A stretch of DNA of 20,408 bases. It comes from Pinguiococcus pyrenoidosus (Eukaryota; Sar; Pinguiophyceae; Pinguiochrysidales; Pinguiochrysidaceae). Below the pieces are notes generated by a model. It had not been told where the DNA came from, did no database searches, and was given only the letters and a program-made list of their open reading frames with translations. Each line of letters begins with the position of its first letter. The stretch's first letter is position 1. The stretch is taken from NCBI GenBank assembly GCA_019677205.1, contig JAAMXY010004251.1:1-20408 (forward strand). Direction: 5' to 3'. Below, in pieces: positions 237 through 18,095 of the stretch. A program made the translations under genes and the position numbers.

Positions 237-2248
237 ATGTGCGAGGCGTTGTCGCGGTGCCGGCGCTGGTGGACCGCGATCAATCAAAATGTGCAAGTCG
301 CTCTCCTACAAGCTGCAGGCACTGGCGTTGCGGACTCCATCTGGACGACAACGTAAGCGACGGACCCGGAACATCCACGGCCGCCCTGTCGGAAGCCGGC
401 CCCTAATGGATTTCCCCCCTTTGCGGCGCAGCGTTCTCTCCAGCTTTATCTTCGTCCTCGCGGACGACAGCAACACCGTCGTGGGCGTTATTGAGATGAT
501 CCAAGGCCTCACGACGCTGCTCGTCGCGCTGCCGATGGGCTGGCTTGCAGACCGCTTCTCCAAGGCAGGGGTCATTCGGGTCGGCGGCGTCTTCGCCATC
601 ATCGCTTTGATTGCCACCAGCGCAGTCGTAGTTCTGGCCAGCGACAAGGAAGACGCCAGTGCTGACGACAGGTGGGTGCAGTTGTCTCGGTCTTGCGGCC
701 CGAGGAGCCGCGGCAGGTCGCAGGAGCTCCGCACCAGCCGCATGGATCTGTTCTCACCGCCCGTCGTCTCCTTCGCCCAGAAACGTCAAGGCCCTGCTCT
801 TTGCGCTGGGCGGCTGTGCCTGCATCTGGGGCGTCGTTGATGCGGTCGTGCAGGGCCCCGCGCCTGCTCTTTTTGCAGACTCGCTGCCGTCGGGCAGTCG
901 CAGCAGGTGGTACACCTACACCTTCGTTGTAAACATGGCCGGTCGCACGGTTGGTCCGATCGTGACGATCGTGATGTTCAGCTTCTTTGGCGACACCTGG
1001 ACGCTACCCGAGATTCGCACGGTGTTCCTGGCCGGCATGCTGGTCGAGCTCATCAACGCACCGACGTTCTTCCTCTACGACGACTCGAAGGCCCTGGACC
1101 AGCAGCCGTCGGCTACCGACCTGTCCGAGTCGCTTCTGGAGGATGGAGAAGCCCAGCAAGACGGCGGGAAGAGCGCCAAGGTGGAAGCAAAAGAGCGCCC
1201 TCCTGCCATGCCTGGGAAAGGCTGCGTCGGTGAATGGCTTGGCATACGATCGCAACATGTGCCCTACATCATGTTCGCCAACGACGTTGTGGTGGCCTTT
1301 GGGTCGGGAATGACCATCAAGTTTTTCCCCCTCTTTTGGAAGGAGGAGGTCGGACTGAGTCCGTCCCAAGTACAGGCGATCTTCGTGCTGGTCCCGATCG
1401 CAATTGCCTTCAGCTCGACGGTGGCCACGCGCCTTTCCAGGCACATCGGAAGGATCTACGCCATGATCACCGTCAAGTTCATCGGCATCTCCTTCCTCAT
1501 TTTGATGATCTTCCTCAAGGATCGGGTCCCGGCACTTGCCTTGATTGCCTTCTACCTCATACGGACGGGACTCGTCAACTCGACATATCCCCTCGAGGAG
1601 TCGGTGCTCATGGACTTTGTGCCCGCCGATACGCGCGCAAGGTGGAAGTCCCTGCAAAGCGTCACGAGCTTTGGATGGTGCGGCAGTGCCGCGCTCGGTG
1701 GTGTACTAGGCGATAGTCACGGATACGATTTTACCTTTTTGATCACAGCGGCGCTGCAGGTAAAGCACCTCGGATAAGCTGTTCTATGGGATACCAGTAG
1801 TTCCGAAAGGGCTGACGCTTGTTGTTGCTATTGTGGTTGTTGTCGTCGCTGTTCTTCTTCTTCTTAGGGTATGGGCGCTTGCTTGCTTATTTTCATAGCG
1901 CATCTCGTGCCCTACGAGACCAGCGACGAAGCAGAAGGCGAGAAGCTGGCAGGGAAAGCAGGCTACGAAGCTCCTGCTCCGGACGACGCGTCGCTTCAGC
2001 CCACAACTAGCTTGCTAGGCGACGAGAGCTTTCTGAGCTTCCGCTGGCACGAGAATCGTGCTGGTGACGGGCAAGACTCGACGGAGATAGTGATTGACTT
2101 CGAAGGAGAGGGTGCTGCCGAAGGAGCCAGCGATGGCTTCACGTCGCCCCAGGGCATGATGAGTCCCGGGAGATTTGTGGAAGGCGGATATCACGTTGGA
2201 AAGGTTTCTGCTGGTGACGAAGACACGGATCAACAAAGAATAGAATGA
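237..2248 (+). CDS. Major facilitator superfamily (MFS) transporter, four exons, 571 aa
   Basis: Predicted 12-TM secondary transporter of the MFS; the substrate cannot be told. Exons are 237-352, 432-671, 781-1759 and 1868-2248, with introns of 79, 109 and 108 nt (GTAAGC, GTGGGT and GTAAAG donors; CAG, CAG and TAG acceptors; phases 2, 2, 0). The last acceptor follows a long pyrimidine tract. The joined frame is 1716 nt. TM1 is made only by joining exons 1 and 2 (IWTTT then VLSSFIFVLADD), which supports the first intron. The MFS motif A variant GWLADRFSK lies at residues ~75-83, in the TM2-TM3 loop. A hydrophilic acidic loop (~218-262) separates the two six-helix halves. After the last helix (GMGACLLIFIAHLVPYE, completed across intron 3) there is a ~110-residue acidic, presumably cytosolic tail. 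The start at 237 gives a short cytosolic N-terminus; an upstream start cannot be excluded. The family is clear but the subfamily is not. Confidence 0.9.
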
Positions 2249-2397: not shown

Positions 2398-5330
2398 CTA
2401 GAGGCCTGCAAACGGGTCGTCATTGTCCGCACTGTTCTGTGGCTCGATGCTCGGGGCAGCGGCGTTTGTGGGCTGCTCGTCTATTCCAAGCAGATCAATG
2501 AGCAGGGGGATGTCGCTTTCGGGAACAGGCTCGTCGAGAAGATCCTGCATCGAGGTCTGCGTCGATGTTTGCGGCTCTGGCGCGACCATTGGCTCAGGTG
2601 CCGATGCCTCGGCAGCCTCGGGAGCTCGCGCTTCGGCTTCGGGTGCAATCGCAGGCTGATCCGCACTCACGTCCGCAGGAGGTCCGCTTTTAGTCGGCGT
2701 CTTGACGCGTCTGGGAGCCGGCTGCCTGCGGCGGCGGCTCTGAGACGATCCACCGCTCGTGGATCCGCCAAAGAGCGCTGCCGCCCGTTGCTCCTTCTCG
2801 CGCTGCTCCTGCAACTCCAGCTCGCGATCCACGCTTGTTTGAGATTGCCAGGCCTCCGCTGGCTGCGCCTGGTAGCTTTCGCTCACGCTCGGAGTTGGCA
2901 TGCTCATCTTGATCTCCGCGGGAACGATCGGCGAAGGCGACGAACCCCCCGCCGGAAGTGCTTCCGTAGGCTTCGGCCTGCCCCACGGCCCCGCCCTCCT
3001 GGCAAGGGACGGTTTCGCAACCTGGGTGGCAGCAGGCAGCGTCGCTGGTCCGACCGCGTCCGGCGCAGCGGCCGTCTGAGTCGGCCTCACGAGCGGGGGA
3101 GGCTTCGGGTGCATCTCCGGCTTGGAGTAGGGCGTGAATGATAAGGTTACCGAGTCGTCGACCTCATCGTCCATGTTGTCGAAGTCCGGGGGCGAATACC
3201 GCGGGGCTCCCGCCTTGATGGCACCTTCCACGAAAGCGTTTAGGAAGGCCAGGGATTCGTCCACTTGGATGTCCTCGCTGCTCGCGTCCACGGGAACGAC
3301 CTGGACATACACCTCCGGCTTCTTGATCAGCGACAGCATCTGCAAGCAGCGTTCCTGCAGATTGACATCCTCCGACATGGTCCCTGCCTCGACAAACTCA
3401 AGCACCCCTCCGTCGCATTCCCCCGTGGTCGCAGTGAGCTTCATGATCGAGCTGACAAGCATGCACACGGTGTGCCGCCGATTCGGCTGGGCACGCAACG
3501 TCTCCGCGTACTTGGCTAGTTCCTGCATGACCTCCGCGCCGGTGCGGCTCTCCGCCCAGGAGCCGTACTCTCCCAAGGTCCAAGCGATGGCTTGGATCAC
3601 AATGTCCGGCAGAATCGTGCCCTCGTCGTTGCTCTCTTCCAGAACAACAAGGAAGGACTCGACGGCTCGGACGCACAGATCCTCGTTGTCATCCGTGCTG
3701 GCTTCCGCGAGGATCGACAGCAGGTCCTGCATGACGCTCTCCTGGACGAGGTCGCCGCAGATGATGAAGATGTCCGTCATGGTGTTGATGTACCACTCGT
3801 CGTTGGGAGCCAGCTTCTCTGCCACGCCAATGGCGTCGTGGCAGAGCTCCTTCTTCCGGAACTGGTCTCCTTCAACGCGCAGGGCTTCAATGAGCGTCTC
3901 CATGATGCCTTCGACGTTCTGCGCATTCGCCATTCGACATAGGAGGCTGAGCGCTTGCGTCCGCAGCGTCGGATCCGTGTCCTCAAGGCAGTCAATGACC
4001 GCCACCTGATACCGGTTGCCGATCGCCGGCCGGATCCGGACGATCGCGTTCAGGGCCTTGATGCCGATGTACTTGGAGTTCAGCGAGACGCTTTCCGCGG
4101 TCAGCAGCCGATTGACAAAGGAGGCGCTCTTCTCAAGGAGAGCGTCGTTGGGATAGATGGTCGTCGCACACTTGACGCATTCGTACACCACGGCGTTCGA
4201 GGCGTTGATGCCCATGTCGGAGCGCCGCATGACCTCTACGAGCACTTCGTACATGCCCTCGGAAGCGTCCTTGTCGCTCTTCCCGAGAAGGGACAGCAGT
4301 CGCACAATCTGCATCGTGATCCACGGCGCGGGCACCCGATGATAATCGAACTCCTTCGGCAGGCGGTGCTCGACGATCTGCTTCGCGATGCTGACCAGGC
4401 TGGGCACGAGATCCTTGAAGAAGTTGGCGTCCTTCCGGATGAGATACTCCAGTCCCGGAAGCGCGCACGCCATGACCGAGGGCTGCGCGTCACAGAGAGC
4501 GCGCCGGAAGGCATCCGCCGTCTCCATGACGATGCTGTAGTCGAGCATCGTGAACGAATGGAGCGTGCCCAGCGCCTTCTTGCGCACGTCCGTGTTGTCA
4601 TGGCGGGCGAGCCGCACGACAAGCCCAACAAGCGGGGGCACCATCTCTGGGGTGGCGAGAGTCGCAGCGGCTTGGAGCGCGCAAGAGACCTCCAAGAAGT
4701 TGCTCGACGCCAGATCCCGCTGCATCTGAGTGTTGTGGGGAGATGGTGGTCACGGCAGGCTTGGTCGCTCGTTTCGTCGGGCACAAGTCCAGTACCTGGT
4801 TGACCAGCATGACGCGAAAGACATTGTCCGGCGCGAGGAAGATCCCACACGCCAGGTATCCCGTCCTCTTTTCATGGATCTAGATAGGGGGGAAAAATAA
4901 ACGAAACCAGAAGCGAAACCAGAAGCGAAACCAGAAGCGAAAGCGTTAGTGAAGGAAGAGTTTCCTTTCCACGAATCCCGCTGGCAACCATTCCGTCGGC
5001 TCATGAATACGCATTGACGATGAATACGCATTGACTACGAACCTTGGAGGACGCTGCTAGTTCCACCGCCTTCATGTGCCCGAACTGGGCATCATGGCCC
5101 AACATCTCGAGGTAGATACACCGAACGACGAACTCCTTGAGCCGATTCCGCGGCAGCGCGGCGGAGCCTTTGAGCTTCTCCTTCAAGTTCCGGGCCTCCT
5201 TCGCCATGATCTCGTTCTCTTCCTGCTTGCTGTAGGTCTCGCCGACCGATTTGATCAGCTTGTAGAACTCGTGGGAGATGTGGGAGGCGTTGTGGCCCAT
5301 CATGATCTGTCCAACCGCGTCCGAATACAT
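2398..5330 (-). CDS. AP4E1: AP-4 adaptor complex epsilon (large) subunit, three exons, 899 aa
   Basis: Large subunit of the AP-4 coat complex, which sorts cargo from the trans-Golgi network. Exons read downward are 5330-5043, 4879-4796 and 4725-2398; introns are 4880-5042 (163 nt) and 4726-4795 (70 nt), both phase 0 and GT-AG. The joined frame is 2700 nt. The trunk (adaptin N-terminal, HEAT-like solenoid) runs from about residue 15 to 600. It shows epsilon-family landmarks: EMLGHDAQFGHMKAVEL, then KRTGYLACGIFL across junction 1, VNQ-MQRDLASSN across junction 2, LPKEFDYHRVPAPW, and QVAVIDCLEDTDPTLR. This alignment confirms both introns. Beyond ~620 comes a low-complexity Pro/Ala/Ser/Glu hinge that runs to the stop; no folded appendage (ear) domain is seen. 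The C-terminus carries LLGID (869-873), which fits the clathrin-box consensus, and DPF (894-896). The start ATG at 5330 is the first in frame after a plausible upstream AG; ATGs at 5303 and 5300 are alternatives. The N-terminal ATG at 5438 would add a non-adaptin-like extension. Confidence 0.93.
4903..4938. repeat. Three perfect 12-nt tandem repeats inside AP-4 epsilon intron 1
   Basis: The unit GAAACCAGAAGC occurs three times head to tail at 4903-4914, 4915-4926 and 4927-4938, followed by a partial fourth copy. It sits near the 3' end of the intron (gene on the minus strand), upstream of the acceptor at 4880. On the coding strand it reads as a GCTTCTGGTTTC repeat, which is fairly pyrimidine-rich and could serve as an extended polypyrimidine tract. 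Confidence 0.9.
5003..5035. repeat. 16-nt direct repeat inside AP-4 epsilon intron 1, near the donor
   Basis: ATGAATACGCATTGAC occurs at 5003-5018 and again at 5020-5035, separated by one base. It lies 7 nt inside the donor of the same intron that carries the 12-nt triplication. Confidence 0.9.
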
Positions 5331-5900
5331 TGTGTTGATTCCAGCTCCTGAGACACAGCTCAACCGCACGACTCCGCTTCCCCCCTCAGTTACAAAATAA
5401 ATCGAGCAACGACGCCCCAAAACGCAGGTCTTCGGCAACCGGTGTCCTACACGGAGGGTGTGCGCGCCCAGCTCGCAGATCTTCCGTGGGATTTGGCTTG
5501 TGCTTCATTGTATGCACATATTGTGTATAAAAATTATTTATTTTTTGTTTTACTATAAAGTACATGCATTGAATTGTTACTAATTTTGAATTAAGAAAAT
5601 TGAAATTGTATTTTGATGCCTTTTTGTGAATCTGTCACGTGGAATTTGAAAAGAGAAAGAACAATCGGTGTCGTCGGCTTTTTCCCGCCCTCTTTGCATC
5701 AGCGCCACTTTCGAGGCTGAAAACTTCTTCGACCTTCCCAAGAGCAAGGTTGCTGACTGCGCAGCAGCAATCTGGGGGAGGTTTACGTAGCAGCTTGGAC
5801 GCAATAGCAGCATCTTTCCCCTGAAGATCCACCGCAAGCCACTGCTACCTTTCCCTGCTACCGCCACTGTGACGGCTACGGCCACTGCGCGTGCTGCACA
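5331..5900. promoter_or_regulatory. Head-to-head intergenic region, probable divergent promoter
   Basis: The 570 nt between the start codons of AP-4 epsilon (-) and the EF-hand giant (+) contain no supported gene. Most of the locus is GC-rich, but about 5510-5640 is strongly AT-rich, with TATA-like strings at 5526-5532 (TATAAAA) and 5554-5560 (TATAAAG). The part from ~5640 to 5900 is likely 5' UTR of the + gene. Promoter function is inferred from position and base composition only. Confidence 0.45.
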
Positions 5901-8900
5901 ATGTCAGACACGGATTGGGAGGACCGATACCGAAAGGTGCTGGAGCAGCGCAACGAGCTCCAGCAGCGCTGCAATGATCAGGAGGTCACGATCCGACGCA
6001 TCAATACCCGGCTTGCTCAGATCGAGAACAACATCGCAGCCAAGCAGCGCCTCGAGGCCAGTGGCGTTCGGCCTACGAGCCAGCCCCGCAATCGAGAGAA
6101 CGAGCAGCTTATCGAGGACCTCTTCAAGCGCAATAACGAGCTGATGAAGAAGAACCAAGAGCTCATGCGAGGGCACAAGAAGCTAGCGACGGAGCTGGAG
6201 AAGAAGAAGCGGGAGCTCGCGCGAAAGTTCGCTGGCCGGACCAGGTCGGGCACCGCGCCAGGCAGGAGGAAGGCGGGCGACGCAACAGCTGCCGGCGAGA
6301 CGGAGAACAAGTCCGTCACGCAGCTGAACAAGCTCGTCGCGCAGCTACGTACGCATCTGCAGAATGCAGAGACCATGCGGGACAAGTTGAAGCAGGAGAA
6401 TGCCCGCCTCAGAGGGCTTTCGAAAGATGTGGCGACGCAGCCGACTGCTGCGATGCAGGAGCTGGCGACCGCTGCGGCCATGGCAGGGGAGCGCATCTCG
6501 ATCGGCAGCGAAAACGAAGAGATCCTTGCGCTCCAGCGCGAAGTCCGAGAGTCCCACGCTCGGTACCAACTGCTGCAGACGCGCTACGATCACGTCGAGG
6601 CCAAGATGAAGGCGCACCTGGAGCTGCACGGCGGATCCTTCGAGCAGATGGAAGAGATGAACAAGCAGGTGCGCGATCTCCGCCGTGCGCTGGAGCAGGC
6701 AGTGGAGGACAAGGAGACCGCGCAGGAGCGCGCAGGCCAGGCGGCTGACTTGATGGACCGGGTCCGGGAGCTGGAGCAGAGCAATCGGGAGCGTGAAGAC
6801 GAGATCCAACGGCTCTGCCAGTCGCCCTTCATCTCCGAGGCATACGAGAATCAGGAAAGGATGCGACGACTGGAAAGTGCCGAGGAGCGGGAGAAACAGC
6901 AGAAGCTCCAGATCTCTCACCTTCGCGAGACCGCACAGACGTACCACAACGCCCTGACACAGCTTCAGAACAAGGCTAACGCGCTGATGGCAGAGAAGGA
7001 GGTCGCGGTTCGGGAGCTCGATGCCCTGAGGATCAAGATTCGCGAATCGGAAACGAGCGCGGAGCTGCTGAATGCCATGCCAAGCTCGTTCTCGCTCATC
7101 TACGGCGACGACGTCAACCCGGTCGAGCTGGAGAAGGCCCTCGCGATGATCCGGCGGCGCCATGAGAACCCGACGGCCATGTCGTTCCTGGAAGGCGGGG
7201 AGGGGGAAGAAGACACGGTTCCCAGCCTTCGAAGACGCCTCCAGGAGCTGCAGATCCGAAACCTCGAGCTCCAGCGGGAGGTGGAGAGAACGGAGCGGAT
7301 GCTCAAGGCTCAGACGAAGATCAATCGCGAGCTGCACGTGGAGGTTGAGGAAGTGAGCAAGACGACCAACGCCAGCAAGATGGAGCTGCAAGTGCAGCTG
7401 GCGGAGGCGGAGGCCGAGCGCGACCGCGGCAAGCAGCGGATCCAGATGCTGGAGGCGCAGGTCAAGCAGCATCTCTACTCCATCCAGCATGGAGCGAAGT
7501 CGATGGGACCTGCCCTTGCCCTGCCCATGGACGAGGAGGACGAAAGCATGGCGGACACCGCCTACGCCGCAGACCTGGCGGCGGACATAGGCCCTGATGA
7601 GAACATCGTGGAGGTCTGGATCCGCCGGGTGGAGCTCAAGGACGGCTCGTTGGAAGACGCTTCAAGCACCTTCTGCATCATTGATTTCTACGACTTCGAG
7701 TCCGTTGCCACGCCGATCATGACGGGGCTGGAGCCTGCCTTCGACTTCGCGACGACCTACAAGGTTTCGCTGGACGACTTCTTCCTCCGCTTCTTGGCCA
7801 CCGAGAGCTTGACGGTCGAGCTCAACCTTACCAAGCGCGGCGCCGACTTTGACATTCTCGCAAGAGCTCAGGTTCCGCTGGGAAGCATGCTGGAAGCCTA
7901 TCGACCGGTGCTGGTCCTGAGCCACGAACCCCTGTACAGTTTGCGCAGCGGCACCATACTTGGCCACGTGCACCTGGAGGTGCGCCTCGCCGTTCCCGTC
8001 GTCGAGCTGTACCGCATGTTCCTGCGGAACCACCCGGAGGAGCGCGCAGGCATCGAAGAGACCGTGCGGAATCGGGTGCGAAGCATCAAAGCCGACGGCG
8101 GCGTGGGCCTCGCGAGCGAAGCCGCGCTGCTCAACAACGAGTTGAAAGTGACCATCGTCAAGGTGGAAGACCTTCCGAAACGCGCGCGCAAAGGAGGGAA
8201 CCCCGACCCCTACGTACACTACAAGCTTCTGGGCTTCGGAGACACGTTCACTGAAATCGCACGTGGCGTCCGGTCGCACCGCTTCAACGAGACGCACGCC
8301 TTCGGCGTCGTGACCGACCAGCGCCTGCTCCGTCTCCTCAAGTCCGAAGTGCTGGAAGTCACGGTACTGGATGACGTCGCCACCGACGGTGGAGCGGCGG
8401 ATATCGTGCCGTCGCTGTCAGCCAAGCGCCTCCGATCGTTGCCGGGAACGGTGCAGGAGGCGCTCAAGGCGCTCCTGCTAGACGAAGCCAAGTTGCTTGA
8501 ACTGTTTGGCAATCGCGAGGGCCGCACCAAAGGTGTGGTGAGCACCAGCGACTTCGTCGCCGTTCTGGCGCAGCTTGACTTTGCCGGCTCCGGCGCGGAC
8601 CTGGACGCCGCCGCGGAGGCCTTTGACTTGGCAGGAGACGGCTTGATTGAGTATGCAGAGGTTGTAGAGACGCTGCGCTCCGCCACGGAGGGGGAGGATG
8701 AAGAGGATGCTCTGCTCGGTGAGGCGTCGGTGCCGCTGGCGCCGCTGGCTGAGGGTGAACCAGTGAGTCAGGAGGTGGAGCTGAGCGACGGCGGCGCCAT
8801 CCAGATCCATATGGAGTGGGCGCGGCCACTTCTGGGAAATGCCGAGAAGCGCCCGAGCGCATTGTGCGGGACGGAGGTGGAGGCGTTGCTGGAAAAGTTC

Positions 8901-11900
8901 AGTCCGGTGAAGGATGGGAGGGTCGACTACTTTGCGATGCGAGACTTTGTCGATCCTCCGCCCACGATCCAGCGCTGCTTGGAACGCATCCACGACTTCC
9001 TGAGCCTGCGACTGCAAGATCACGGCGAAGACGCGCGCACCGTCTTCCATTTCCTCGGCGGAGCCGACGCCAGGATTCTGTCCGACGCTTTCGTGTCTGG
9101 GCTGCTCCGTTCCAAGTTGCAGTTGGGCCTCCACGCTGACGAGCTCGAGAGCTGCTTTCGCTTCCTGGACCCGCAGGCCAGTGGCTTCATCACACTGGAT
9201 GCCTTCTTGGAGTTCGCGCGGCCGGTGCCGGCGTTCTTCCAGGCGGTGATCCAGAAGCTTCGCGGCAAGGTGAACGAGAGGCGGCAGCTGGGGTTGGAGC
9301 CTTTCCAGCCTTTCATCCGGATGGATCCATCCGGCACCGGAAAAGTGACTCGAAGAGAGTGCAAGATGGCGCTGCGAGAGCTGGGCTTCACGCTGGTAGA
9401 TGAGCCGGAGCCGGAGGTGGAGGACCGCAAGCGCCAGGGCTTTGGTGCCGACGCGGAAGATGATGTTCTGGAGCCAGACGTCAAGGTGGCGACGCATCTG
9501 CGCCACGACGACGAGCGTCGCGTCCAGGAAGAGCGGCGCGAGTTCCAGGAACGCATCGACGCTCAGTACAAACGCATGGAACGCCTCGCGCCCAGCAAGG
9601 CCTTTGCGATGGGGGAGGACCATGCAACCGCGGCTCTTGCAGGTGATCCCGATCCCGTCGAGGAGGGCAAGGAGCGAATCGACGTCTCCGGCGTCACTCC
9701 TGCGGTAGCGGCGCGGAGTACAGCGTCTCTTTTAGATGAAGACGAGGATGGCGACCACGAAGGTCGGGAGCCACAGCATATCAGCGGCGACGAGCCTGGC
9801 GGAGTCGTGTTGCGACAAGAGAGACTTGATGGTGCCCACACCCACGCAAGGGAGCTGACCACCGAGAAGGCGCGCGGGACAGCGTTGCACATCGTGGAGG
9901 CCGAGCGCCAGCTCCGCAGCAGCCTCGACAAGCTCAAGGGCGTTCGTGCGCTGCCGCACTTCGCCACCACCTTCCTGGGTCTCGACACGCAGACCGGCCC
10001 GACGGGCCGCTGCACAAGAAAGCAGTTCCTGTCTGCCCTGGCACAGCATACGGATTCTCTGAGGCTCAGCGGCGCGGCGCAGCGGGGCTTGTGCCGACAC
10101 TTTGACGTGAACCTGGATGCTTTCGTGCAAGACGCAGCGGCGCCGGATGAGCGTGCCATCGACTACCGCGCCTTCCTGCGCTTCGTGGAGTTCCAGGCGC
10201 CGACGCCGGCGGCAGGTCTGTCGGCCATGCGCGAGATGCAGCTGCCGCCCAGAGCCATGAGCGTCTTCAAGGCCAAAGAGATGCGCACGCGAAGCGGATA
10301 CGTCAGCAACGAGGCCTTCGTCGACTGCCTTCGCGAACTGGGGTACCAACATCTCAGCGCGTCCACGGTGGCATCCGTGGCGTTTCTCTTTCAACTCCAC
10401 CGCAATCTCAGCAGCACGGGTCGCTCCAGCTCGGACGTCAACTACGTCGCCTTCCTGGCCTTCGTGGCGGAGCAAAAGGCGCAGAAAGAAGTGGTCGAAG
10501 CGGAGATCTTGCTAAGGCGGCGGATCCTGGAGGCGGCTGGCCTGAAAGACGCAGACGCAGATGATGACAGCACTCTTCCGGCGCTGCGCGCCATTTTCAG
10601 CAAGTTCCAAGCACACGGCGGAGGCGTCCAGACCATGGGGGTCTGCGACTTGAACGACTGGTGCGTCGGCGTCGAGGCGCTGTGCCACTCGCAGATCAGC
10701 ACCGCGATGAGTGAGAGACTCTACGCCCGGCTGGATCCCTTCGCAGAAGGCGTCACCTTCGAAGACTTTGTCCACTACGCACGAGACAAGGCGTTCAGTA
10801 GTCGAAACGCCATCGGCGCCCTTGACGTCGTCGACATTCGCAAGAAGCTGCACCTCTGCCGCACGGCGGCCGCTGACGAGGGCTCTCCCAGCACGATTGA
10901 AGTGGACCGGTGCTTCCAACACTACGACTGGCGTGGCAGTGGCCGCCTCGACGAGTTGTGCTTTCGAGAGGCCTGCGTCCTGGCCGGCTTCACGCTCACG
11001 GCCGCCGACTGCGCCAAGCTGGTCCAGGAGTTGGGGGATGGCGCCACCATCCCCTACGCCGCCTTCCTCAAGATGGCGACGCCGCCGCTGCTGTCCAGCC
11101 GCAGAGGGGATGTGGGTGATGACCACTTCGAGGCGCTGGAGTCCATGCGAGCGGCGATTCGGACGGCGCACGCCGCTGGCGCGCCGGTGCTGGAAGTGTT
11201 CCAGAGCCACGAAAGCGAGAGCGGGTGCATGTCGGTAGCGGCCTTGGTAGAAGCCATGGCCGTTCTTGGGCACTCACTGGTAAAGCGCGAAGCCAAGATC
11301 GTTGCGGAGGCCTACGGCGACGGCCGAGGAGAGGTGCTGTGGCAGGACTTTGTCGACTCCGCCATCGAGGTGCAGACGGTGAAGTCGGTGCCGGAGCTGC
11401 TCATCCAAGTGCGGAAGGAGCTGCTGCGGCTGGACCCCGAAGCCACCGCGCTGCGCGTGGCGTTCGAGAGAAAGGACCTTGGGAACACTGGGCGCATCGA
11501 GCGCGGCGCCTTCCAGAGAGCCTTGGCGCACGTGGGCATGTCCATCAAGCCGAGAGAAGCGCTGCAGCTTGCCGGCGCCTTCGCGGCGGGAGCGCAGGTG
11601 GCCTATCGTGAGTTCCTGGATGCCCTACGCCTCGTGAGCGCCACCGCCGCACCGGACACGCTCCACTACACCTACCAGCTGGGCAGCCAACGCGCCAAGG
11701 GAAGCACGGTGCTGTCGAGATACCCATCCAGTTGCATGGAACGCTTTGCGGACGTGCTGCAGACGGCGATTCGCAAAGGCATCGACTACCGCTTTACGTT
11801 CGAGCATCACGACGACAAGTTGACGGGCTTCCTGAGCGTGCCCGAGTTCCGCAGCGCCTTGTACGCGCTGTACAGCGACCTCACGGACGGCGAGGAGGAC

Positions 11901-14900
11901 GAGCTGATCGAGCGCTTCGGCGACGACGCTGATCGCGTGGCCTATCTGGAGCTGCTGTACGCCGTACCGGCGCAGACCTTCTGTCCTGGGCACCCGCGAA
12001 GCGTCTGGGTCGGCGACAACTGGCGCGTCGAGGAGCACTTCCGCTTCCTCGTCCGACAGCGCTTCGACTACTGGGTCCCCAACGGGCTGCGCAAGGCCTT
12101 CTACCACTTCGACGTCGACAAGCAGGGCGAGTTCAACGAGGCGCAGTTCTCCGAGGGGCTTCGACTGCTCCAGCGGATGGGCAAACTGAGCACCGAGCAG
12201 GAGCACTTGCTCTTCAGGAGACTGGATTTGGACGGCGACGACTTTGTCTCGTATCCCGACTTCGTGGTGTTTGTCCGGGATCCCAACCACTGCGACGTGG
12301 CGCAGCGCCTGCGCCGGGATCTGCACCGGGCGGACGTGACGCCAGAGAAGATCCGCGAGATGCTGGAAGACGAGGAGAACACCAGGGGTTCCCTCGTGTC
12401 CAAGCGCAGCCTCGACAAGGTCCTCTCGGACCTCGGGGTCACCCTCACGGCGCAGGAGATCGACCGGATGGTGACGCGCTTCAGCCCCGACGAAGACGGT
12501 GCTGTGAGCATTCGTCGAGTTCTGGCGTTCGTACGCGGTACGACGGAAGGCGGAGACGACCTTTTTGGCGACAGTCGATTTGCGGAGACCCGAAGGTCTC
12601 GCGTCGTTGACATCGATGACGAAGAAGAAGGCGAGCCTGGTGAGAATGAAGTGGAGGACAAGATTCGGCAGCTTCTTAAGGACTTGAAAGAGATCGTCGA
12701 AAGTGCGCAAGAGCGCGGCATTAGCACGCCGGCTGCGATCTTCGACCGTTTTGACCAGAACAAGTCTGGCAACATTAACGTCAGCGAGCTGCAGAAGGGC
12801 CTGCAGTCCCTGGAGATGAGGGTCTCTCGTGAAGAAGCGCGCACGCTGATGCGCGAGCTCAGCGGAGATGGGGGCCGCCTGACGTACGAGTCCTTCCTCG
12901 CGGCGCTCGGGGTGGAAGAGCGGGTGGAAGCCAGCTACAAAGTGAACTTGAGGGTGATCATCAATCTTCTCATTTCGCAAGGCGAGAGCATTCCAGTGGC
13001 TATTGAGCAGACCGTGGCGGCCTTCGAAGAGGCGGACGAGAGGAAGTCAGGGCGCATGGTCCCGGCCAAAGTGCGAAAGTGTCTCATGCAGGTTGGTGTC
13101 GAGCTCACGCCGGAGCTTATGGTGCCGATTCAAGCGGAGCTTGACGAGCGCAACACCGGGAACGTGAATTACGACAGGCTACTCGAGGATCTCCGGGTCG
13201 AGGCTGGCAAGCTGGAGACTGCCCTGGAGGCCATCAAAGCATGTTCCAAAGTGCCAAAGCTGAGACACTCGGTGCTCGCAGCGGCCACGGAGGCGGGATC
13301 GGAGGGGAACCACGTGATTTCTCCGGAGGCCCTGAGGCGATGCCTGAGCGCGTTGGGGGCTGAGCTTTTGGAAGAGGACTATGCCATGATCTGCGACGCG
13401 TTCTCCTCCTTCCCCGAGGTACGCGGAGCCAAGGTGGACGTCGACCTGCTGCTGCGCTTTGTCGAGGGAAAGTCCTTCTCACTGGAGGACAGTCCCTTCG
13501 AGGCGGTGGGCAAGTATTTGGGAATCCTCAAGCGCGAGGTCGGCGTCGAGAAGCTGCGGCATCTGCTCCAGAAGGTCGACAAGCACGGCAAGGGGACCAT
13601 CAAGATCCGACGATTCGAAGACGTGCTGAATCGGTTGGGCGATGATTCCGGGCTCAGCGAGGCCAGGCAGGACAAGCTGCTTCGCGGGCTTCGCAAGCTG
13701 ATGAAGGAGATCGACTACGAGGAGATGCTGGACTTCATGGCGCACTACGATCGGACGGCCAAGGACGGAGCTGATGAGGCCTTTGAGAAGCTGAAGGAGC
13801 TCGTGCAAGAGGCGCGGACGGAACGCAACGTTGACCTGCTGCAGGTGTTTTCCGCCTTCGACAAGGACAACTCAGGTAAAACCCGACGGTGCTCCGCAGC
13901 CGGCCTGAATGGCGGCGCATCGCCAACTTCTAACAATCCCCCTTACAGGCGCGGTCGACGCTGCGGAGTTCCGGAAGGGGCTCCTCGAGATCGGCATCAC
14001 GCTGACCGCTGAGGAGTGCCGCCATCTCATGGCAAAGTTTAAGGGGAAGAGAGCCGGCGTCGTAAAGTATCGCGACTTCACGCGAGCCATTGACGGCAAT
14101 GGCAGTCACAAGAAGCCGTTGTCCAGCCACGCGCGCACTCCGCATGCGGACGAGCGCCGCCGGCGGGCACAGCGCCGCTTCCAGTCCCTCAAGGACGAGA
14201 TCCAGCGAGAAATCCGCCGGGCGTGGAAGACGAGCCACGCCAGTCTCAAGCGGCTCTTCAACGAGTTCGACGAGAACAGCACAGGTAGTGCATCAAGAAT
14301 CTCGTCCCAGGTGGCCCACGAGAAACGAGACTCACGCTACGCACGCAGGTGTCATCTCGAGAGATGAGTTCCAGAGAGGCTTGAGACGGCTGCGAATGAA
14401 CCTCAGCTCGGACGACATCCGAGGGATCATTGATGCCTTTGACGAAGATGGAGACGGCAAGATCAGCTACGTCGAGTTCATGCACATCTCCGGCTTCTCC
14501 GAAGAGTCGCCGGCTCCGCAACGGATCCACGAGAACTTCGGGAATCTGAAGGATTCCGTGAAGCGCGAGATCCGACGCGGTCTCCAACGCGAAGGGTCCA
14601 ACCTCAAGAACCTCTTCGCACGCTTTGACCGGGATGGAAGCGGCGAGATCACGAGGGACGAGTTCGGAAGGGCGCTGCAGAAGCTTGGCTTGGACATGAC
14701 GGAAACAGAGCTGTACGACCTGGTGGAAGCCTTCGACGCCGATGGAAATGGTACGTTTGGGTCGCTTCGCCGAAGCCTTCAGGCTCATCAGATGCTTGCT
14801 CACGAGTTTCGCAATGGGACGCACGGCGCGCAGGGAAGATAAGCTACCGCGAGTTCATGGACATCGTGAACTGGGAGAAGGTGGAAGAGGATGCGGGAGG

Positions 14901-16935
14901 GGCTACGCACAGCTTCCAAAGCCTCAAGGATACGGTCCGCAAGGAAGTCCGCAAGCTCTTCGACGAGCACGGGCGAGATCTCAAGACGGTCTTCACCGAG
15001 TTTGATTCGGATGCCACGGGGGCCATCACCAGGGATGAGTTTCGACGGATCCTACGCCGGTTCAAGCTGAAGATCTCCGATGCTGACGTGTACGACCTCG
15101 TCGACGCCTTCGACCGGGACAAGGATGGAAAGATCGACTACAGCGAATTCATGGGGATCGCTGGCGTGCCGGAGGTGCGGCACGAACGCCGGGGTCGAGA
15201 CGACGGAGACGACGGGGCTTCGCGGACGAAGCAGCGCAAAAGCTTTGAGCGGCTGAAGGACGACGTACGAGCCGAGGTTCGGGATCTCGTTGAGAAGCAC
15301 GGAGGCAACCTGAAACGCACCTTCGAGCGCGTGGACGAATCTGGTCGAGGGCAGATCAGTCGATCGCAGTTCCGCCGCGTCTTGTCGGACCTTCGGATGA
15401 CTCTCCGCAGCAGCGACATCAACGATCTCTTTGATGCCTTTGATAGCGACGGCAACGGCAGGCTGGACTACCGGGAGTTCATGGACATTGCAGGCGTGCC
15501 GGTGGTCAAGGAACGGAAGACTGTCAATGGATTCCAGAAGCTCAAGGACCATGTCCAAGACGAGATCCGCAGGTTTGTCGACCGGAATCGAGGGAACCTG
15601 AAACAGCTCTTCGCCGACATGGATCGCGACGGATCCGGTGAGCCCCGCATTCTCGATGCGTGGAAACATGTCGTCAGGTCAAGTGACGAGAACCACCGCT
15701 GCTTTCCAGGTCGCATCACGCGGGAGGAACTTCGCCGGGGACTGCGCGAGCTGAATGTGGAGCTTAGCAGCGCTGAGATCTACGATCTTGTGGATGCCTT
15801 CGACGCCGACAATGACGGCCGCATTGACTACAACGAGTTCATGGAGATCGGTGGCCTGGCCCCCGGGAGGAGGACCAGAGCTCCCGAAGCCAAAGATCTG
15901 AAAGAGACCGTCCAGGCAGCTCTGCGAAAGCTTAGCGGCAGGCATGGGGCGGGCCTGAAGCGGATGTTCGCAGATCTCGACCGAGATGGATCAGGTGCGG
16001 CATCTCTGAGCCATTCTAGGGACGAACTGCTGCTAAGCCGGGTACGGTGTCGATCCAGGACGCATCACGCGGGAAGAGTTCCGCAGAGGGCTCCGCGATC
16101 TGAACATTAGCCTCTCCAGCGCCAGCATCTACGATCTGGTGGAGGCCTTCGACAAGGACGGCGACGGTCGCATCGACTACCGCGAGTTCATGGAGATCGC
16201 GGGCATCGCGGGCGTGGCTGCACGGAAGAGCCCTCGAGTTTCTGGAATCCATCGGCTGAAAGAGAACGTGCAGGACGTGCTGCGCAGGCTGGCGGACAGG
16301 CATGGAGGAGGACTGAAGCAAGTCTTCGCCGATCTCGACAGAGATGGCTCAGGTACCCCCCGAGGACGCTGCAGCCCAGGCCTGGACGATTGAGGGCTTA
16401 CTCACGCACGCGCGTCGTAGGCTCCATCACTCGGGAGGAGTTCCGGCGGGGGTTGCGTGAGCTCGACATGGACCTCACAACCGCCGAGCTGTACGACCTC
16501 GTCGACGCCTTCGACTCGGACAAAGATGGGCGAATCGACTACAGGGAGTTCATTGAGATGGCGGGCACCAGCATCGATCACGGACGCAGGAGGAGCAGCG
16601 AGCACTCCCCCTCGCGCCGAAACAGCGACGGCCGAGATCGAAGCAAGTCCAGAGGAGATGACCGGCGTCGATCTGCCGAGGAGCTCCGTGATCGCATCAA
16701 GCGCGCTCTCCGCCGCCTCTCCCGTGAGAAGCGTGGAGGGCTGCTGCAGGCCTTCGAAGAGTTCGATCAGGATGGCTCGGGCCTCGTGACGAGGAGCGAG
16801 TTCAGGCGAGGCCTGCGCGATCTGGGGCTAAAGCTCGATGACGCCGACGTCTTTGATCTGGTGGAACGTCTCGACCGCGACGGCGACGGCCGGGTCTCTT
16901 ACCGAGAGTTCAGGCAATTCGTGGACGACTTGTGA
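5901..16935 (+). CDS. RPGRIP1L: Giant RPGRIP1L (fantom)-like protein fused to a long EF-hand array, seven exons, 3536 aa
   Basis: Likely ciliary scaffold. RPGRIP1L family proteins sit at the ciliary transition zone and bind NPHP4. Exons are 5901-13875, 13949-14284, 14349-14750, 14834-15637, 15710-15994, 16059-16352 and 16421-16935. The six introns are 64-83 nt, GT-AG and all phase 1, and the joined frame is 10611 nt. Domains in order: coiled coil ~1-545, beginning WEDRYRKVLEQRNELQQRC like the family N-terminus; C2 domain one ~566-700 (FYDFES...PIMTGLEPAFDF, as in RPGRIP1/RPGRIP1L); C2 domain two ~746-977 (PDPYVHYKLLGF...LLKSEVLEVTVLDD...IQIHMEW), interrupted by an EF-hand insert at ~826-936; then from ~978 a long series of EF-hand-like units, mostly degenerate up to ~2650, with acidic disordered linkers at ~1180-1370 and ~2220-2250; finally nine EF-hand pairs at 2654-3528, mostly canonical. 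No C-terminal RPGR-interacting C2 domain is recognised. The start ATG at 5901 is the first ATG of the frame and begins directly with family sequence. Confidence 0.9.
7596..8000 (+). other. First RPGRIP1-type C2 domain of the giant protein
   Basis: Residues ~566-700 match the central C2 domain of RPGRIP1/RPGRIP1L: an opening strand (NIVEVWIRRVEL), the diagnostic TFC-x-x-x-FYDFE-type string (here TFCIIDFYDFES), PIMTGLEPAFDF, a DFFLRFL segment, and closing strands (GHVHLEVRLAVP). The Asp cluster of Ca2+-binding C2 domains is not evident, as in the family, so this is probably a protein- or lipid-binding C2. Confidence 0.8.
8136..8831 (+). other. Second C2 domain with an EF-hand module inserted in it
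   Basis: Residues ~746-825 are the first part of a C2 fold (NELKVTIVKVEDL, DPYVHYKLLGFGD, LLKSEVLEVTVLDD). Residues ~937-977 supply the final strands (LLGEASVPLAPLAEGEP, then IQIHMEWARPL). In known RPGRIP1L proteins these two parts are joined by a short loop. Here about 110 residues (nt ~8376-8705) come between them and form an EF-hand-like pair. Its second loop, DLAGDGLIEYAE (909-920), is near canonical; the first is degenerate. Confidence 0.75.
8832..13857 (+). other. Degenerate EF-hand-like array encoded by the intronless first exon
   Basis: Residues ~978-2653 repeat a helix-loop-helix pattern, usually as pairs about 90-110 residues apart, with short hydrophobic patterns such as F-x-x-A-L-x-x-L-G and a late E-F or D-F. 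Most loops lack one or more calcium ligands. Near-canonical ones include DPSGTGKVTRRE (1142), DVDKQGEFNEAQ (2071), DLDGDDFVSYPD (2109) and DQNKSGNINVSE (2285). Acidic low-complexity linkers interrupt the array. The pattern resembles long EF-hand proteins such as EFCAB6, but this is an architectural comparison only. Confidence 0.7.
13858..16926 (+). repeat. Nine tandem EF-hand pairs split by six phase-1 introns
   Basis: Each unit is ~95 aa: a lead helix (pattern F-x-x-L-K-x-x-V-x-x-E-I-R), then a first EF loop of type DRDGSG-x-ITREE, then a second loop of type DxDxDGRIDYREF. Introns are 13876-13948, 14285-14348, 14751-14833, 15638-15709, 15995-16058 and 16353-16420. Every one cuts the Gly codon at loop position 6 after its first base. 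Five are in the first hand of a pair and one (14751) is in the second hand. Exons 5 and 6 (285 and 294 nt) are each exactly one symmetric 1-1 repeat unit. The loops of the last eight pairs carry mostly intact ligands at positions 1, 3, 5, 9 and 12, so calcium binding is expected. A Ser/Arg-rich linker (~16580-16680) separates the last two pairs. Confidence 0.9.
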
Positions 16936-17040: not shown

Positions 17041-18095
17041 CTACTTCTGGATCTCGCTAATGATGTCTTGAAAGTCTTCTACGAACCAGTCTGCCCCCGC
17101 CTTTACCTCCTCCCGTACAGTGACGCCGCCGTAACCTAGTCACGAGACGCATGAGTCGCAGGCAGCACGCAGGCAGCAGCAGGCAGCAGGCAGCAGGCAG
17201 CAGGCAGCAGGCAGCAGGCAGCAGACAGCAGGCAGGCGGCGGGTGGAAGGCGGCGGGCAACGTTTTCACATGTTCTTGCATGACCTTTCTTACCAATGAA
17301 CGCCTGTGCCGGGGGCCGCGCCTCCATGTCCGTGGCTCCGTCGCCAATCATGACCACTGTGTTGTAAGCATGGTTCTGAATAAGCTGGGCGACCACATCT
17401 GGCTTGCCTCCGCTGCGGGACGTGGGCTCGGTCTCATCAAAGGCGTCGTACGTCCCGTCCTCCTGCGGCGGTCGCGCAGTGAGCAAAGTGATGGGGTGGG
17501 AATCCGCCGCCAATGCAGGGGTTCACCTTGAATCGGAGAGTGTTTGCAAAGACATTCTCAGGCGGGATGCTCAGCTGCTGTCGGACCGGCTCGATCATGA
17601 GACGGAAACCACCCGAGACGAGGTACACGTCTGCCCCAACTGTGTTGCGAAGCGCCGCCACCAGCTCCTCAAGGCCGGGGTTCAGCTGCGGCCTGTGCTC
17701 CGCAAGGCACTTCTCGATGTCCACCTTCGAGGGGCGGATCAGGTCGAGGCGCGCTTCCAACGCGTCCCGAAACTGCATGCTGCCGCCCATGGCGCTTCTG
17801 GTGAGCGCACTCACTTCGTCATACTTGCCGAGAAACTTCGCCAGCACGTCGATGCCCTCCTCGGTGATCACCGTGCTGTCCACATCGAAGCAGACCGCGT
17901 CGGCAACCTACGAGATGCAGGAGCGCTCAGCCATTCAGACCTGGGGGCCGGCCATGCAGCAGAGCCGAGGCGCTGCACCTTGATCGACTCCTTTGCCGTG
18001 CGCAAGCGCTCAGCCGCGCTCGTGCTCAGCGATCTCCGCGATCTCAGCGAGGACAGGGGAGATCGCGAGCAGAAGGAGCGCACCAGCGCAAACAT
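17041..18095 (-). CDS. PSPH: Phosphoserine phosphatase, four exons, 253 aa, probable organelle presequence
   Basis: Hydrolyses O-phosphoserine to serine in the last step of the phosphorylated serine pathway (HAD superfamily). Exons read downward are 18095-17979, 17907-17527, 17462-17294 and 17135-17041; introns are 71, 64 and 158 nt, GT-AG, phases 0, 0, 1. The joined frame is 762 nt. Catalytic motifs are intact: CFDVDSTVITEEG (motif I, nucleophile Asp), LVSGGF (motif II Ser), SGGK (motif III Lys) and MIGDGATDMEA (motif IV). AMGG and FDETEPT match the family. The last exon restores the C-terminus GYGGVTVREEV...WFVEDFQDII. The first ~35 residues are Arg/Ser/Leu-rich without acids (MFALVRSFCSRS..., RRSLSTSA) and precede the catalytic core, so a mitochondrial or plastid transit peptide is likely. 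ATGs at 18119 and 18155 are possible alternative starts. Family members without a presequence are ~225 aa, which fits 253 with one. Confidence 0.94.
17158..17240. repeat. AGGCAGC 7-nt microsatellite in phosphoserine phosphatase intron 3
   Basis: Six perfect head-to-tail copies of AGGCAGC lie at 17181-17222, with imperfect copies on both sides. The array lies wholly inside the 158-nt last intron (17136-17293), ending about 20 nt from the acceptor. On the coding strand it reads as CTG/CCTG repeats, which would spell a Cys/Leu/Ala-rich peptide if wrongly translated. Confidence 0.9.

What the first reader, a model, noticed from the sequence alone, without database searches (positions are those of the whole stretch)
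5901..16935. A transition-zone scaffold (RPGRIP1L-like) fused to a giant EF-hand array
Residues 1-977 carry the coiled coil plus two C2 domains diagnostic of RPGRIP1/RPGRIP1L, in the right order and spacing (first C2 near residue 566). The ~2550 residues that follow are EF-hand units, where animal RPGRIP1L has a short linker and the RPGR-interacting C2 domain. The sequence therefore shows one continuous frame joining a ciliary-gate scaffold to a very large calcium-responsive module. A calcium-tuned transition zone, or a long spacer or spring that stiffens with calcium, are possible functions (inference).
Basis: partly seen in the sequence, partly recalled or inferred. Interest (0 to 1): 0.82.

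Follow-up and report, generated by a model that had tools for sequence, protein, structure and literature searches.

The report
Ciliary-gate scaffold carrying an EF-hand rod
This algal gene joins a protein that builds the gate at the base of a flagellum to a very long string of EF-hand modules; a like join is already published in a ciliate and is seen in the related algae and water moulds sampled here, and most of the string looks unable to bind calcium.

Summary
One gene (5901-16935, seven exons, 3,536 aa) encodes a coiled coil, the RPGRIP1-specific first C2 (PF11618, 124 bits), a second C2 alike to that of a bird RPGRIP1-like protein, then about 2,560 residues of EF-hand-type units; C2s and most of the array share one uninterrupted exon. 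The fusion is not new: Paramecium RPGRIP1L has EF-hands in that place, and a form without them localises normally and rescues cilia shedding (PMC7093003). 47 of 48 homologues found here (oomycetes, brown algae, bolidophytes, unnamed relatives) carry EF-hands or a homologous tail; the exception is the bird protein.

Corrections and additions. (1) The array is mostly calcium-dead: 14 of 15 canonical loops lie after residue 2640, and 29 of 35 oomycete-like rows have none; calcium competence is concentrated in a distal tip that some ochrophytes have and others lack. (2) In this gene and its closest relative only (2 of 49 aligned), an EF-hand-like insert sits in a loop of the second C2. (3) All six introns cut the same glycine codon of an EF loop.

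Best reading: an RPGRIP1L/MKS5 scaffold with a mainly structural EF-hand rod, calcium-responsive at its tip. A new variant of a known kind.

The parts
5901..16935 (+). RPGRIP1L/MKS5-type gene, seven exons, 3,536 aa
   Evidence: Spliced frame without internal stop; six GT-AG introns, each restoring an EF loop
5901..7520 (+). N-terminal coiled coil, residues 1-540
   Evidence: Heptad z 6.6 against shuffles, P/G 5.6%; a simple measure, no dedicated predictor
7584..7997 (+). First C2, RPGRIP1-specific (PF11618), residues 562-699
   Evidence: 124 bits; only place in the assembly; C2 fold in the model
8133..8825 (+). Second C2, residues about 745-975
   Evidence: PF00168; alignment with 48 homologues and the bird protein; model
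8376..8699 (+). EF-hand-like helical insert in a loop of the second C2, residues about 826-933
   Evidence: Present in the window and P0001 only, 2 of 49 aligned; helices between two C2 strands in the model, pLDDT blocks 51-78
8832..13820 (+). Conserved, mostly degenerate EF-hand array, residues 978-2640, with a linker-like stretch at about 1175-1320
   Evidence: One strict EF loop, at 2285; about nine EF-hand pairs counted by eye in the model of 1321-2260; homology to relatives
13821..16935 (+). Distal calcium-competent EF-hand pairs, residues 2641-3536 (exon 1 end to exon 7, six introns)
   Evidence: 14 strict loops; pairs 39-72% identical to one another

Best explanation
This is the RPGRIP1L/MKS5 gene (one PF11618 place in the assembly) of a flagellated ochrophyte alga. 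The coiled coil and two C2 domains most likely build the flagellar transition zone, as the RPGRIP1L of Paramecium does (inferred here). In place of the vertebrate RPGR-binding C2 it carries a rod of roughly two dozen EF-hand pairs. I think the rod is mainly structural: most of its loops lack calcium ligands, and oomycetes keep a rod of steady length with almost no canonical loops. It probably docks along the transition-zone microtubules or neighbouring scaffold proteins. In some ochrophytes the distal end holds calcium-competent pairs, multiplied by tandem duplication, and in this lineage an EF-hand-like segment also entered a loop of the second C2, so calcium could change the stiffness or membrane contact of the outer parts without being needed for assembly. 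Shown: gene structure, domains, conservation, where canonical loops lie. Inferred: location, docking, calcium effect, total number of pairs.
For: RPGRIP1-specific C2 at 124 bits; 2yrb the only PDB match below E 0.01; bird RPGRIP1-like protein aligned over both C2s (E 9e-20 and 5e-6 for that single comparison). One PF11618 place in the assembly, which also has 4 B9-C2 matches, 24 dynein MT-domain matches and IFT46. 44 of 48 homologues carry EF-hand Pfam families and 3 more have tails homologous to relatives' arrays. Tails are 1,506-1,666 aa in 13 oomycete rows that start like the window (a 14th, P0011, has 632) and 2,563 aa here. Strict loops: none in 29 of 35 oomycete-like rows, at most 2; 9, 7, 8 and 8 in P0001, P0004, P0005, P0047; 15 here. 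The mid-array model is a chain of EF-hand pairs whose 11 best Foldseek rows are doublet-microtubule chains; the family profile ranks EFCAB6 and CFAP115 first in the PDB. Paramecium RPGRIP1L without EF-hands localises and rescues deciliation; RPGRIP1L there lies close to the microtubules (PMC8535419 passages).
Against: No localisation, expression or binding data. The EFCAB6/CFAP115 ranking adds up over repeats: with exon 4 alone EFCAB6 led but no single stretch of it passed 1e-8, and with the mid-array sequence alone the 60 rows shown of 207 were calmodulins or calmodulin fusions. The mid-array model's overall shape is unreliable (pTM 0.49; rmsd 23-71 A in the doublet rows). 'Calcium-dead' rests on a strict sequence pattern; a looser one finds 25 sites against 8.5 in shuffles, and degenerate loops can bind calcium. 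Calcium-competent tips are not general in ochrophytes: brown algal P0043 (2,952 aa) has one strict loop, P0044 and P0045 none. Several oomycete rows are incomplete gene models. CEP290 was not found, in a search without a positive control.
Confidence: 0.6

Rival explanations
1. Calcium-tuned gate: the array is chiefly a calcium sensor that changes transition-zone structure, for example in flagellar shedding or steering.
For: 14 canonical loops in the distal 896 residues; cilia shedding is calcium-dependent and needs RPGRIP1L in Paramecium.
Against: Most of the array lacks ligands and oomycete and brown algal versions have almost none; Paramecium delta-EF protein rescues deciliation and localises normally.
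Confidence: 0.2
2. Inert spacer or spring: the units give length or elasticity and bind neither calcium in vivo nor a specific partner.
For: Degenerate middle array; steady tail length in oomycetes.
Against: Collinear conservation over 1,000 residues and more with P0001 (44%) and Triparma P0005 (28%) suggests specific surfaces; distal loops keep full ligand sets.
Confidence: 0.15
3. Two genes or a misjoined model: an RPGRIP1L gene followed by an independent EF-hand gene.
For: None found; an internal start cannot be excluded from DNA alone.
Against: One 2,658-codon exon spans the join; P0001, Triparma, oomycete and brown algal proteins have the same join.
Confidence: 0.03
4. The C2 region belongs to an unrelated C2 family and the protein has no transition-zone role.
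For: The second C2 is only modestly matched by the general C2 profile (28.1 bits).
Against: PF11618 at 124 bits, 2yrb, and the bird RPGRIP1-like alignment.
Confidence: 0.02

Closest known systems
Paramecium tetraurelia RPGRIP1L (PMC7093003; passages and section 14 read)
   Same: Coiled coil, C2 domains, then EF-hands in place of the vertebrate RPGR-binding domain
Vertebrate RPGRIP1 / RPGRIP1L (bird protein P0048; human 2yrb)
   Same: First and second C2 in the same order, 28% identity over 247 columns
   Different: P0048 has PF18111 and no EF-hand family, with 298 aa after the second C2; here PF18111 is not among the families listed and the tail is 2,563 aa
Oomycete, Triparma and brown algal database proteins (some already named 'Protein fantom', 'RPGRIP1 family' or 'Calmodulin')
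   Same: PF11618 with EF-hand families; array segments homologous in most of the 15 compared
   Different: Fewer or no canonical EF loops, shorter tails, no EF-hand-like insert in the second C2 (P0001 excepted)
Tetrahymena CFAP115 and mammalian EFCAB6, ciliary doublet EF-hand proteins
   Same: Head-to-tail EF-hand pairs of similar spacing; CFAP115 has four pairs and a 32-nm repeat, the one-pair Chlamydomonas protein repeats every 8 nm (PMC10105768 passages)
   Different: No PF11618 scaffold known to me (recalled); specific common ancestry with the array not shown

Membership tests
RPGRIP1/RPGRIP1L (MKS5) family | RPGRIP1-specific first C2 (PF11618) | tested here: met
   124 bits, cut-off 29.2
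RPGRIP1/RPGRIP1L (MKS5) family | Second C2 directly downstream, alike to that of animal members | tested here: met
   Alignment with P0048 and 47 others; C2 fold in the model
RPGRIP1/RPGRIP1L (MKS5) family | N-terminal coiled coil of about 500 residues | tested here: met
   Heptad z 6.6, low P/G; simple measure only
RPGRIP1/RPGRIP1L (MKS5) family | Transition-zone localisation | not testable with these tools
   Needs an experiment
Vertebrate RPGRIP1/RPGRIP1L subfamily | C-terminal RPGR-interacting C2 (PF18111) | tested here: not met
   Not among the families listed for the seven exon translations at E up to 1; exon 4's list was cut at 25 of 35. Genome-wide search found none but had no positive control
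EF-hand-bearing RPGRIP1L as in Paramecium | EF-hands where the RPGR-binding domain would be | tested here: met
   compared with the text of PMC7093003 only, not with its sequence
EFCAB6/CFAP115-type doublet EF-hand proteins | Specific kinship of the EF-hand units | tested here: inconclusive
   Top by profile score and fold; PF08976 above cut-off in exon 4 (that this Pfam family centres on EFCAB6 is recalled); not among the rows shown for the mid-array sequence alone
EFCAB6/CFAP115-type doublet EF-hand proteins | Binding to doublet microtubules | not testable with these tools
   Needs an experiment

The most novel reading that the evidence does not exclude
The EF-hand rod is a ruler for the stramenopile transition zone. 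As with CFAP115, where pairs step at about 8 nm on the doublet, each EF-hand pair would occupy one tubulin step, so the number of pairs would set how far the RPGRIP1L scaffold reaches along the doublets (at roughly 96 residues a pair, about 130 nm for the ~1,600-aa oomycete rods and about 200 nm here), while the calcium-competent distal pairs and the EF-hand-like insert in the C2 let calcium loosen or shorten the outer end. Pair number should then track transition-zone length between species.
Probability: 0.08. Interest if true: 0.8.

Novelty: new variant of a known kind. Interest (0 to 1): 0.42.

Why it matters
RPGRIP1L is a core ciliopathy scaffold, and its C-terminus is usually described from the vertebrate RPGR-binding form (recalled). 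The ciliate in the literature and the stramenopiles found here together show that an EF-hand tail in that position is not a ciliate speciality, that oomycetes kept its length with almost no calcium ligands, and that some algae have a calcium-competent tip. This is a natural series for testing whether the tail acts by structure or by calcium, and it corrects the published phrase 'Paramecium-specific'. An EF-hand-like segment nested in a C2 loop would be an unusual joining of two calcium-binding folds.

Tried and rejected
Two-gene or artefact reading: rejected on the long exon and the shared join. Unrelated C2 family: rejected. NCBIfam on exon 1: two weak matches far under their cut-offs (18.1 against 120 bits, 9.7 against 40). 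Rfam: none at gathering score. Introns as copies of one another: local scores low in all 15 pairs. Profile search A2, meant to reach further, found only P0001 and P0007, so no ciliate or other alveolate sequence was compared; descent from a common SAR ancestor is a guess from the paper plus the stramenopiles. VIA-align of the mid-array listed mostly single calmodulin-like pairs. CEP290 coiled-coil profile: none, no positive control. PF08976 over the assembly: one other weak place, 27.2 bits with two stops. Paper searches for RPGRIP1/RPGRIP1L/MKS5 with EF-hands, oomycetes or stramenopiles. Of the papers listed I opened PMC7093003 and PMC8535419; the former describes the fusion, the others listed were seen as titles and abstract starts only. 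In PMC9010356 (passages; first 300,000 of 591,736 characters held) 'rpgrip1' does not occur. The C2-domain paper cited by PMC7093003 (PMC3495828) is not held, so what it says of this architecture is unknown to me. Limits of the counts: protein searches admit only proteins of 0.55-1.75 times the query length, so homologues under about 1,099 aa or 1,462 aa could not appear, and one search scored only the 7,981 candidates sharing most words. The tree used 27 of 49 proteins and warns of long branches for P0048 and P0046. The collinearity test used 15 of 48 homologues; P0046 and P0048 gave no match.

Full report
WHAT WAS CHECKED. The window is contig C721 of a 23.7-Mb assembly in 768 contigs. It holds a seven-exon gene on the + strand. 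I placed six GT-AG introns by eye and joined the exons: 3,536 codons, no internal stop, stop ending at 16935. Exon 1 is 7,975 bases, in a frame open from 5808 to beyond its splice site. It contains the coiled coil, both C2 domains and the first ~1,680 residues of the EF-hand array, so no splice is needed to join scaffold and array.

IDENTITY. Pfam assigns residues 562-699 to PF11618, 'First C2 domain of RPGR-interacting protein 1', with 124 bits against a cut-off of 29.2, and 747-826 to the general C2 family at 28.1 bits. Against the PDB, residues 1-977 match 21 sequences at E up to 10; only 2yrb, 'Protein fantom' (human RPGRIP1L), is below 0.01 (E 1.3e-11); the next is troponin C at 0.017. 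By fold 2yrb is Foldseek rank 10 (E 2.2e-11, 26% identity over 139 columns), below general double-C2 proteins. A bird RPGRIP1-like protein aligns over both C2s (E 9e-20, and 5e-6 for the last strands of the second C2). Residues 1-540 show heptad periodicity (z 6.6; the other four stretches tested gave -0.1 to 2.3). The vertebrate RPGR-binding domain PF18111 is not among the families listed for the seven exon translations (exon 4's list was cut at 25 of 35). PF11618 has one place in the assembly. The assembly also has four B9-C2 matches, 24 dynein MT-domain matches and IFT46, so the organism has flagellar and MKS-module genes. CEP290 was not found, without a positive control.

THE FUSION IS KNOWN AND RECURS. 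[quoted passage not shown]). Three protein searches gave 48 different homologues, all with PF11618. 44 of 48 carry at least one EF-hand Pfam family. Three more (P0011, P0045, P0046) have tails that match the arrays of relatives. The bird protein has none. Named sources include Phytophthora, Nothophytophthora, Pythium, Globisporangium, Plasmopara, Albugo, Aphanomyces, Achlya, Saprolegnia, Scytosiphon, Ectocarpus and Triparma; some entries are already named 'Protein fantom' or 'RPGRIP1 family'. The searches admit only long proteins, so short forms may exist. In a tree of 27 of the 49 proteins the window groups with P0001 (100/100) inside an 11-row clade (100/100) with brown algae and Triparma; I therefore call the host an ochrophyte. 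The 18S search never completed.

THE ARRAY IS MOSTLY NOT A CALCIUM MODULE. A strict EF-loop pattern finds 15 loops; shuffles give 0.024 on average. A looser pattern finds 25 against 8.5. Fourteen of the 15 lie after residue 2640, one at 2285. The strict pattern finds 9 in P0001; 7 and 8 in Triparma P0004 and P0005; 1 and 3 in the shorter P0002 and P0003; 8 in P0047; 4 in P0007; 1, 0 and 0 in P0043, P0044 and P0045 (P0044 and P0045 named brown algae, P0043 grouped with them in the tree); 0 in P0042 and P0046; and in 35 oomycete-like rows (P0006, P0008-P0041, several of them incomplete) none in 29, one in five, two in one. Yet array segments are homologous: residues 1326-2639 match P0001 at 44%, 1324-2338 match Triparma P0005 at 28% (E 4e-92), with shorter and weaker matches to oomycetes and brown algae; of 15 compared, P0046 and the bird gave none. 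Residues after the second C2 number 1,506-1,666 in 13 oomycete rows that start like the window (P0011 has 632), 1,890-2,143 in six ochrophyte-side rows (P0001, P0004, P0005, P0007, P0043, P0047), fewer in P0002, P0003, P0044 and P0045, 2,563 here and 298 in the bird. An AlphaFold model of 1321-2260 (mean pLDDT 79, pTM 0.49) shows about nine EF-hand pairs by my count of its helices. With eight distal pairs and the rest by eye I estimate about two dozen pairs; that total is an estimate.

THE DISTAL PAIRS. Eight window pairs are 39-72% identical to one another, 42-63% to three P0001 pairs and 28-41% to four Triparma pairs; two P0001 pairs are identical over the compared 69 residues. So Triparma's and the window's tips have been multiplied separately or have diverged far, while part of the expansion may predate the split from P0001. 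All six introns are phase 1 and fall in the codon of the glycine at position 6 of an EF loop, five in first-of-pair loops and one in a second-of-pair loop. Tandem duplication of a unit with its intron would give this pattern; so would insertion at a repeated splice-like motif. The introns themselves are not alike.

MECHANISM. The scaffold role of the N-terminal half follows from family identity and from Paramecium. For the rod, three facts argue for structure first: most loops lack ligands, oomycete rods keep their length, and the Paramecium EF-hands are dispensable for localisation and shedding. The best PDB matches of a family profile are EFCAB6 and CFAP115, tandem EF-hand proteins of ciliary doublets, and the 11 best Foldseek rows of the mid-array are doublet-microtubule chains. 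Scores add up over repeats and the Foldseek rmsd is 23-71 A. With exon 4 alone EFCAB6 led again but without one stretch passing 1e-8, and for the mid-array sequence alone the 60 rows shown of 207 were calmodulins. This is a pointer, not proof of kinship. PMC10105768 (passages) reports four EF-hand pairs and a 32-nm repeat for Tetrahymena CFAP115, and an 8-nm repeat for the one-pair Chlamydomonas protein. The ruler idea in the section on the most novel reading follows from that and is inference.

VERDICT. Observation confirmed, interpretation partly supported; a new variant of a known kind, with a published precedent.

Noticed in passing
window 13876-16420: All six introns are phase 1 and interrupt the same codon (Gly at loop position 6) of six different EF-hand loops; the introns are unrelated in sequence.
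   Followed up: partly
window 8376-8699: EF-hand-like helical insert inside a loop of the second C2, shared only with P0001 among 49 aligned proteins.
   Followed up: partly
P0007 (ENA, 2,808 aa), C-terminus: A relative whose EF-hand array is followed by three similar segments of Agenet/Tudor type (PF05641, PF18359; the type names are recalled).
   Followed up: no
window 2401-5504, minus strand: Adaptin large-chain gene (PF01602, E 4.4e-55; a weaker match, 19.3 bits, in the upstream piece), transcribed away from the RPGRIP1L gene.
   Followed up: no
window 632-1774 plus and 17440-17907 minus: MFS transporter (PF07690) and HAD-family phosphatase (PF12710) genes as neighbours.
   Followed up: no
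assembly G000, PF00168 search: 54 C2-domain matches in a 23.7-Mb assembly, several in very long open frames (for example C578, C456, C255).
   Followed up: no
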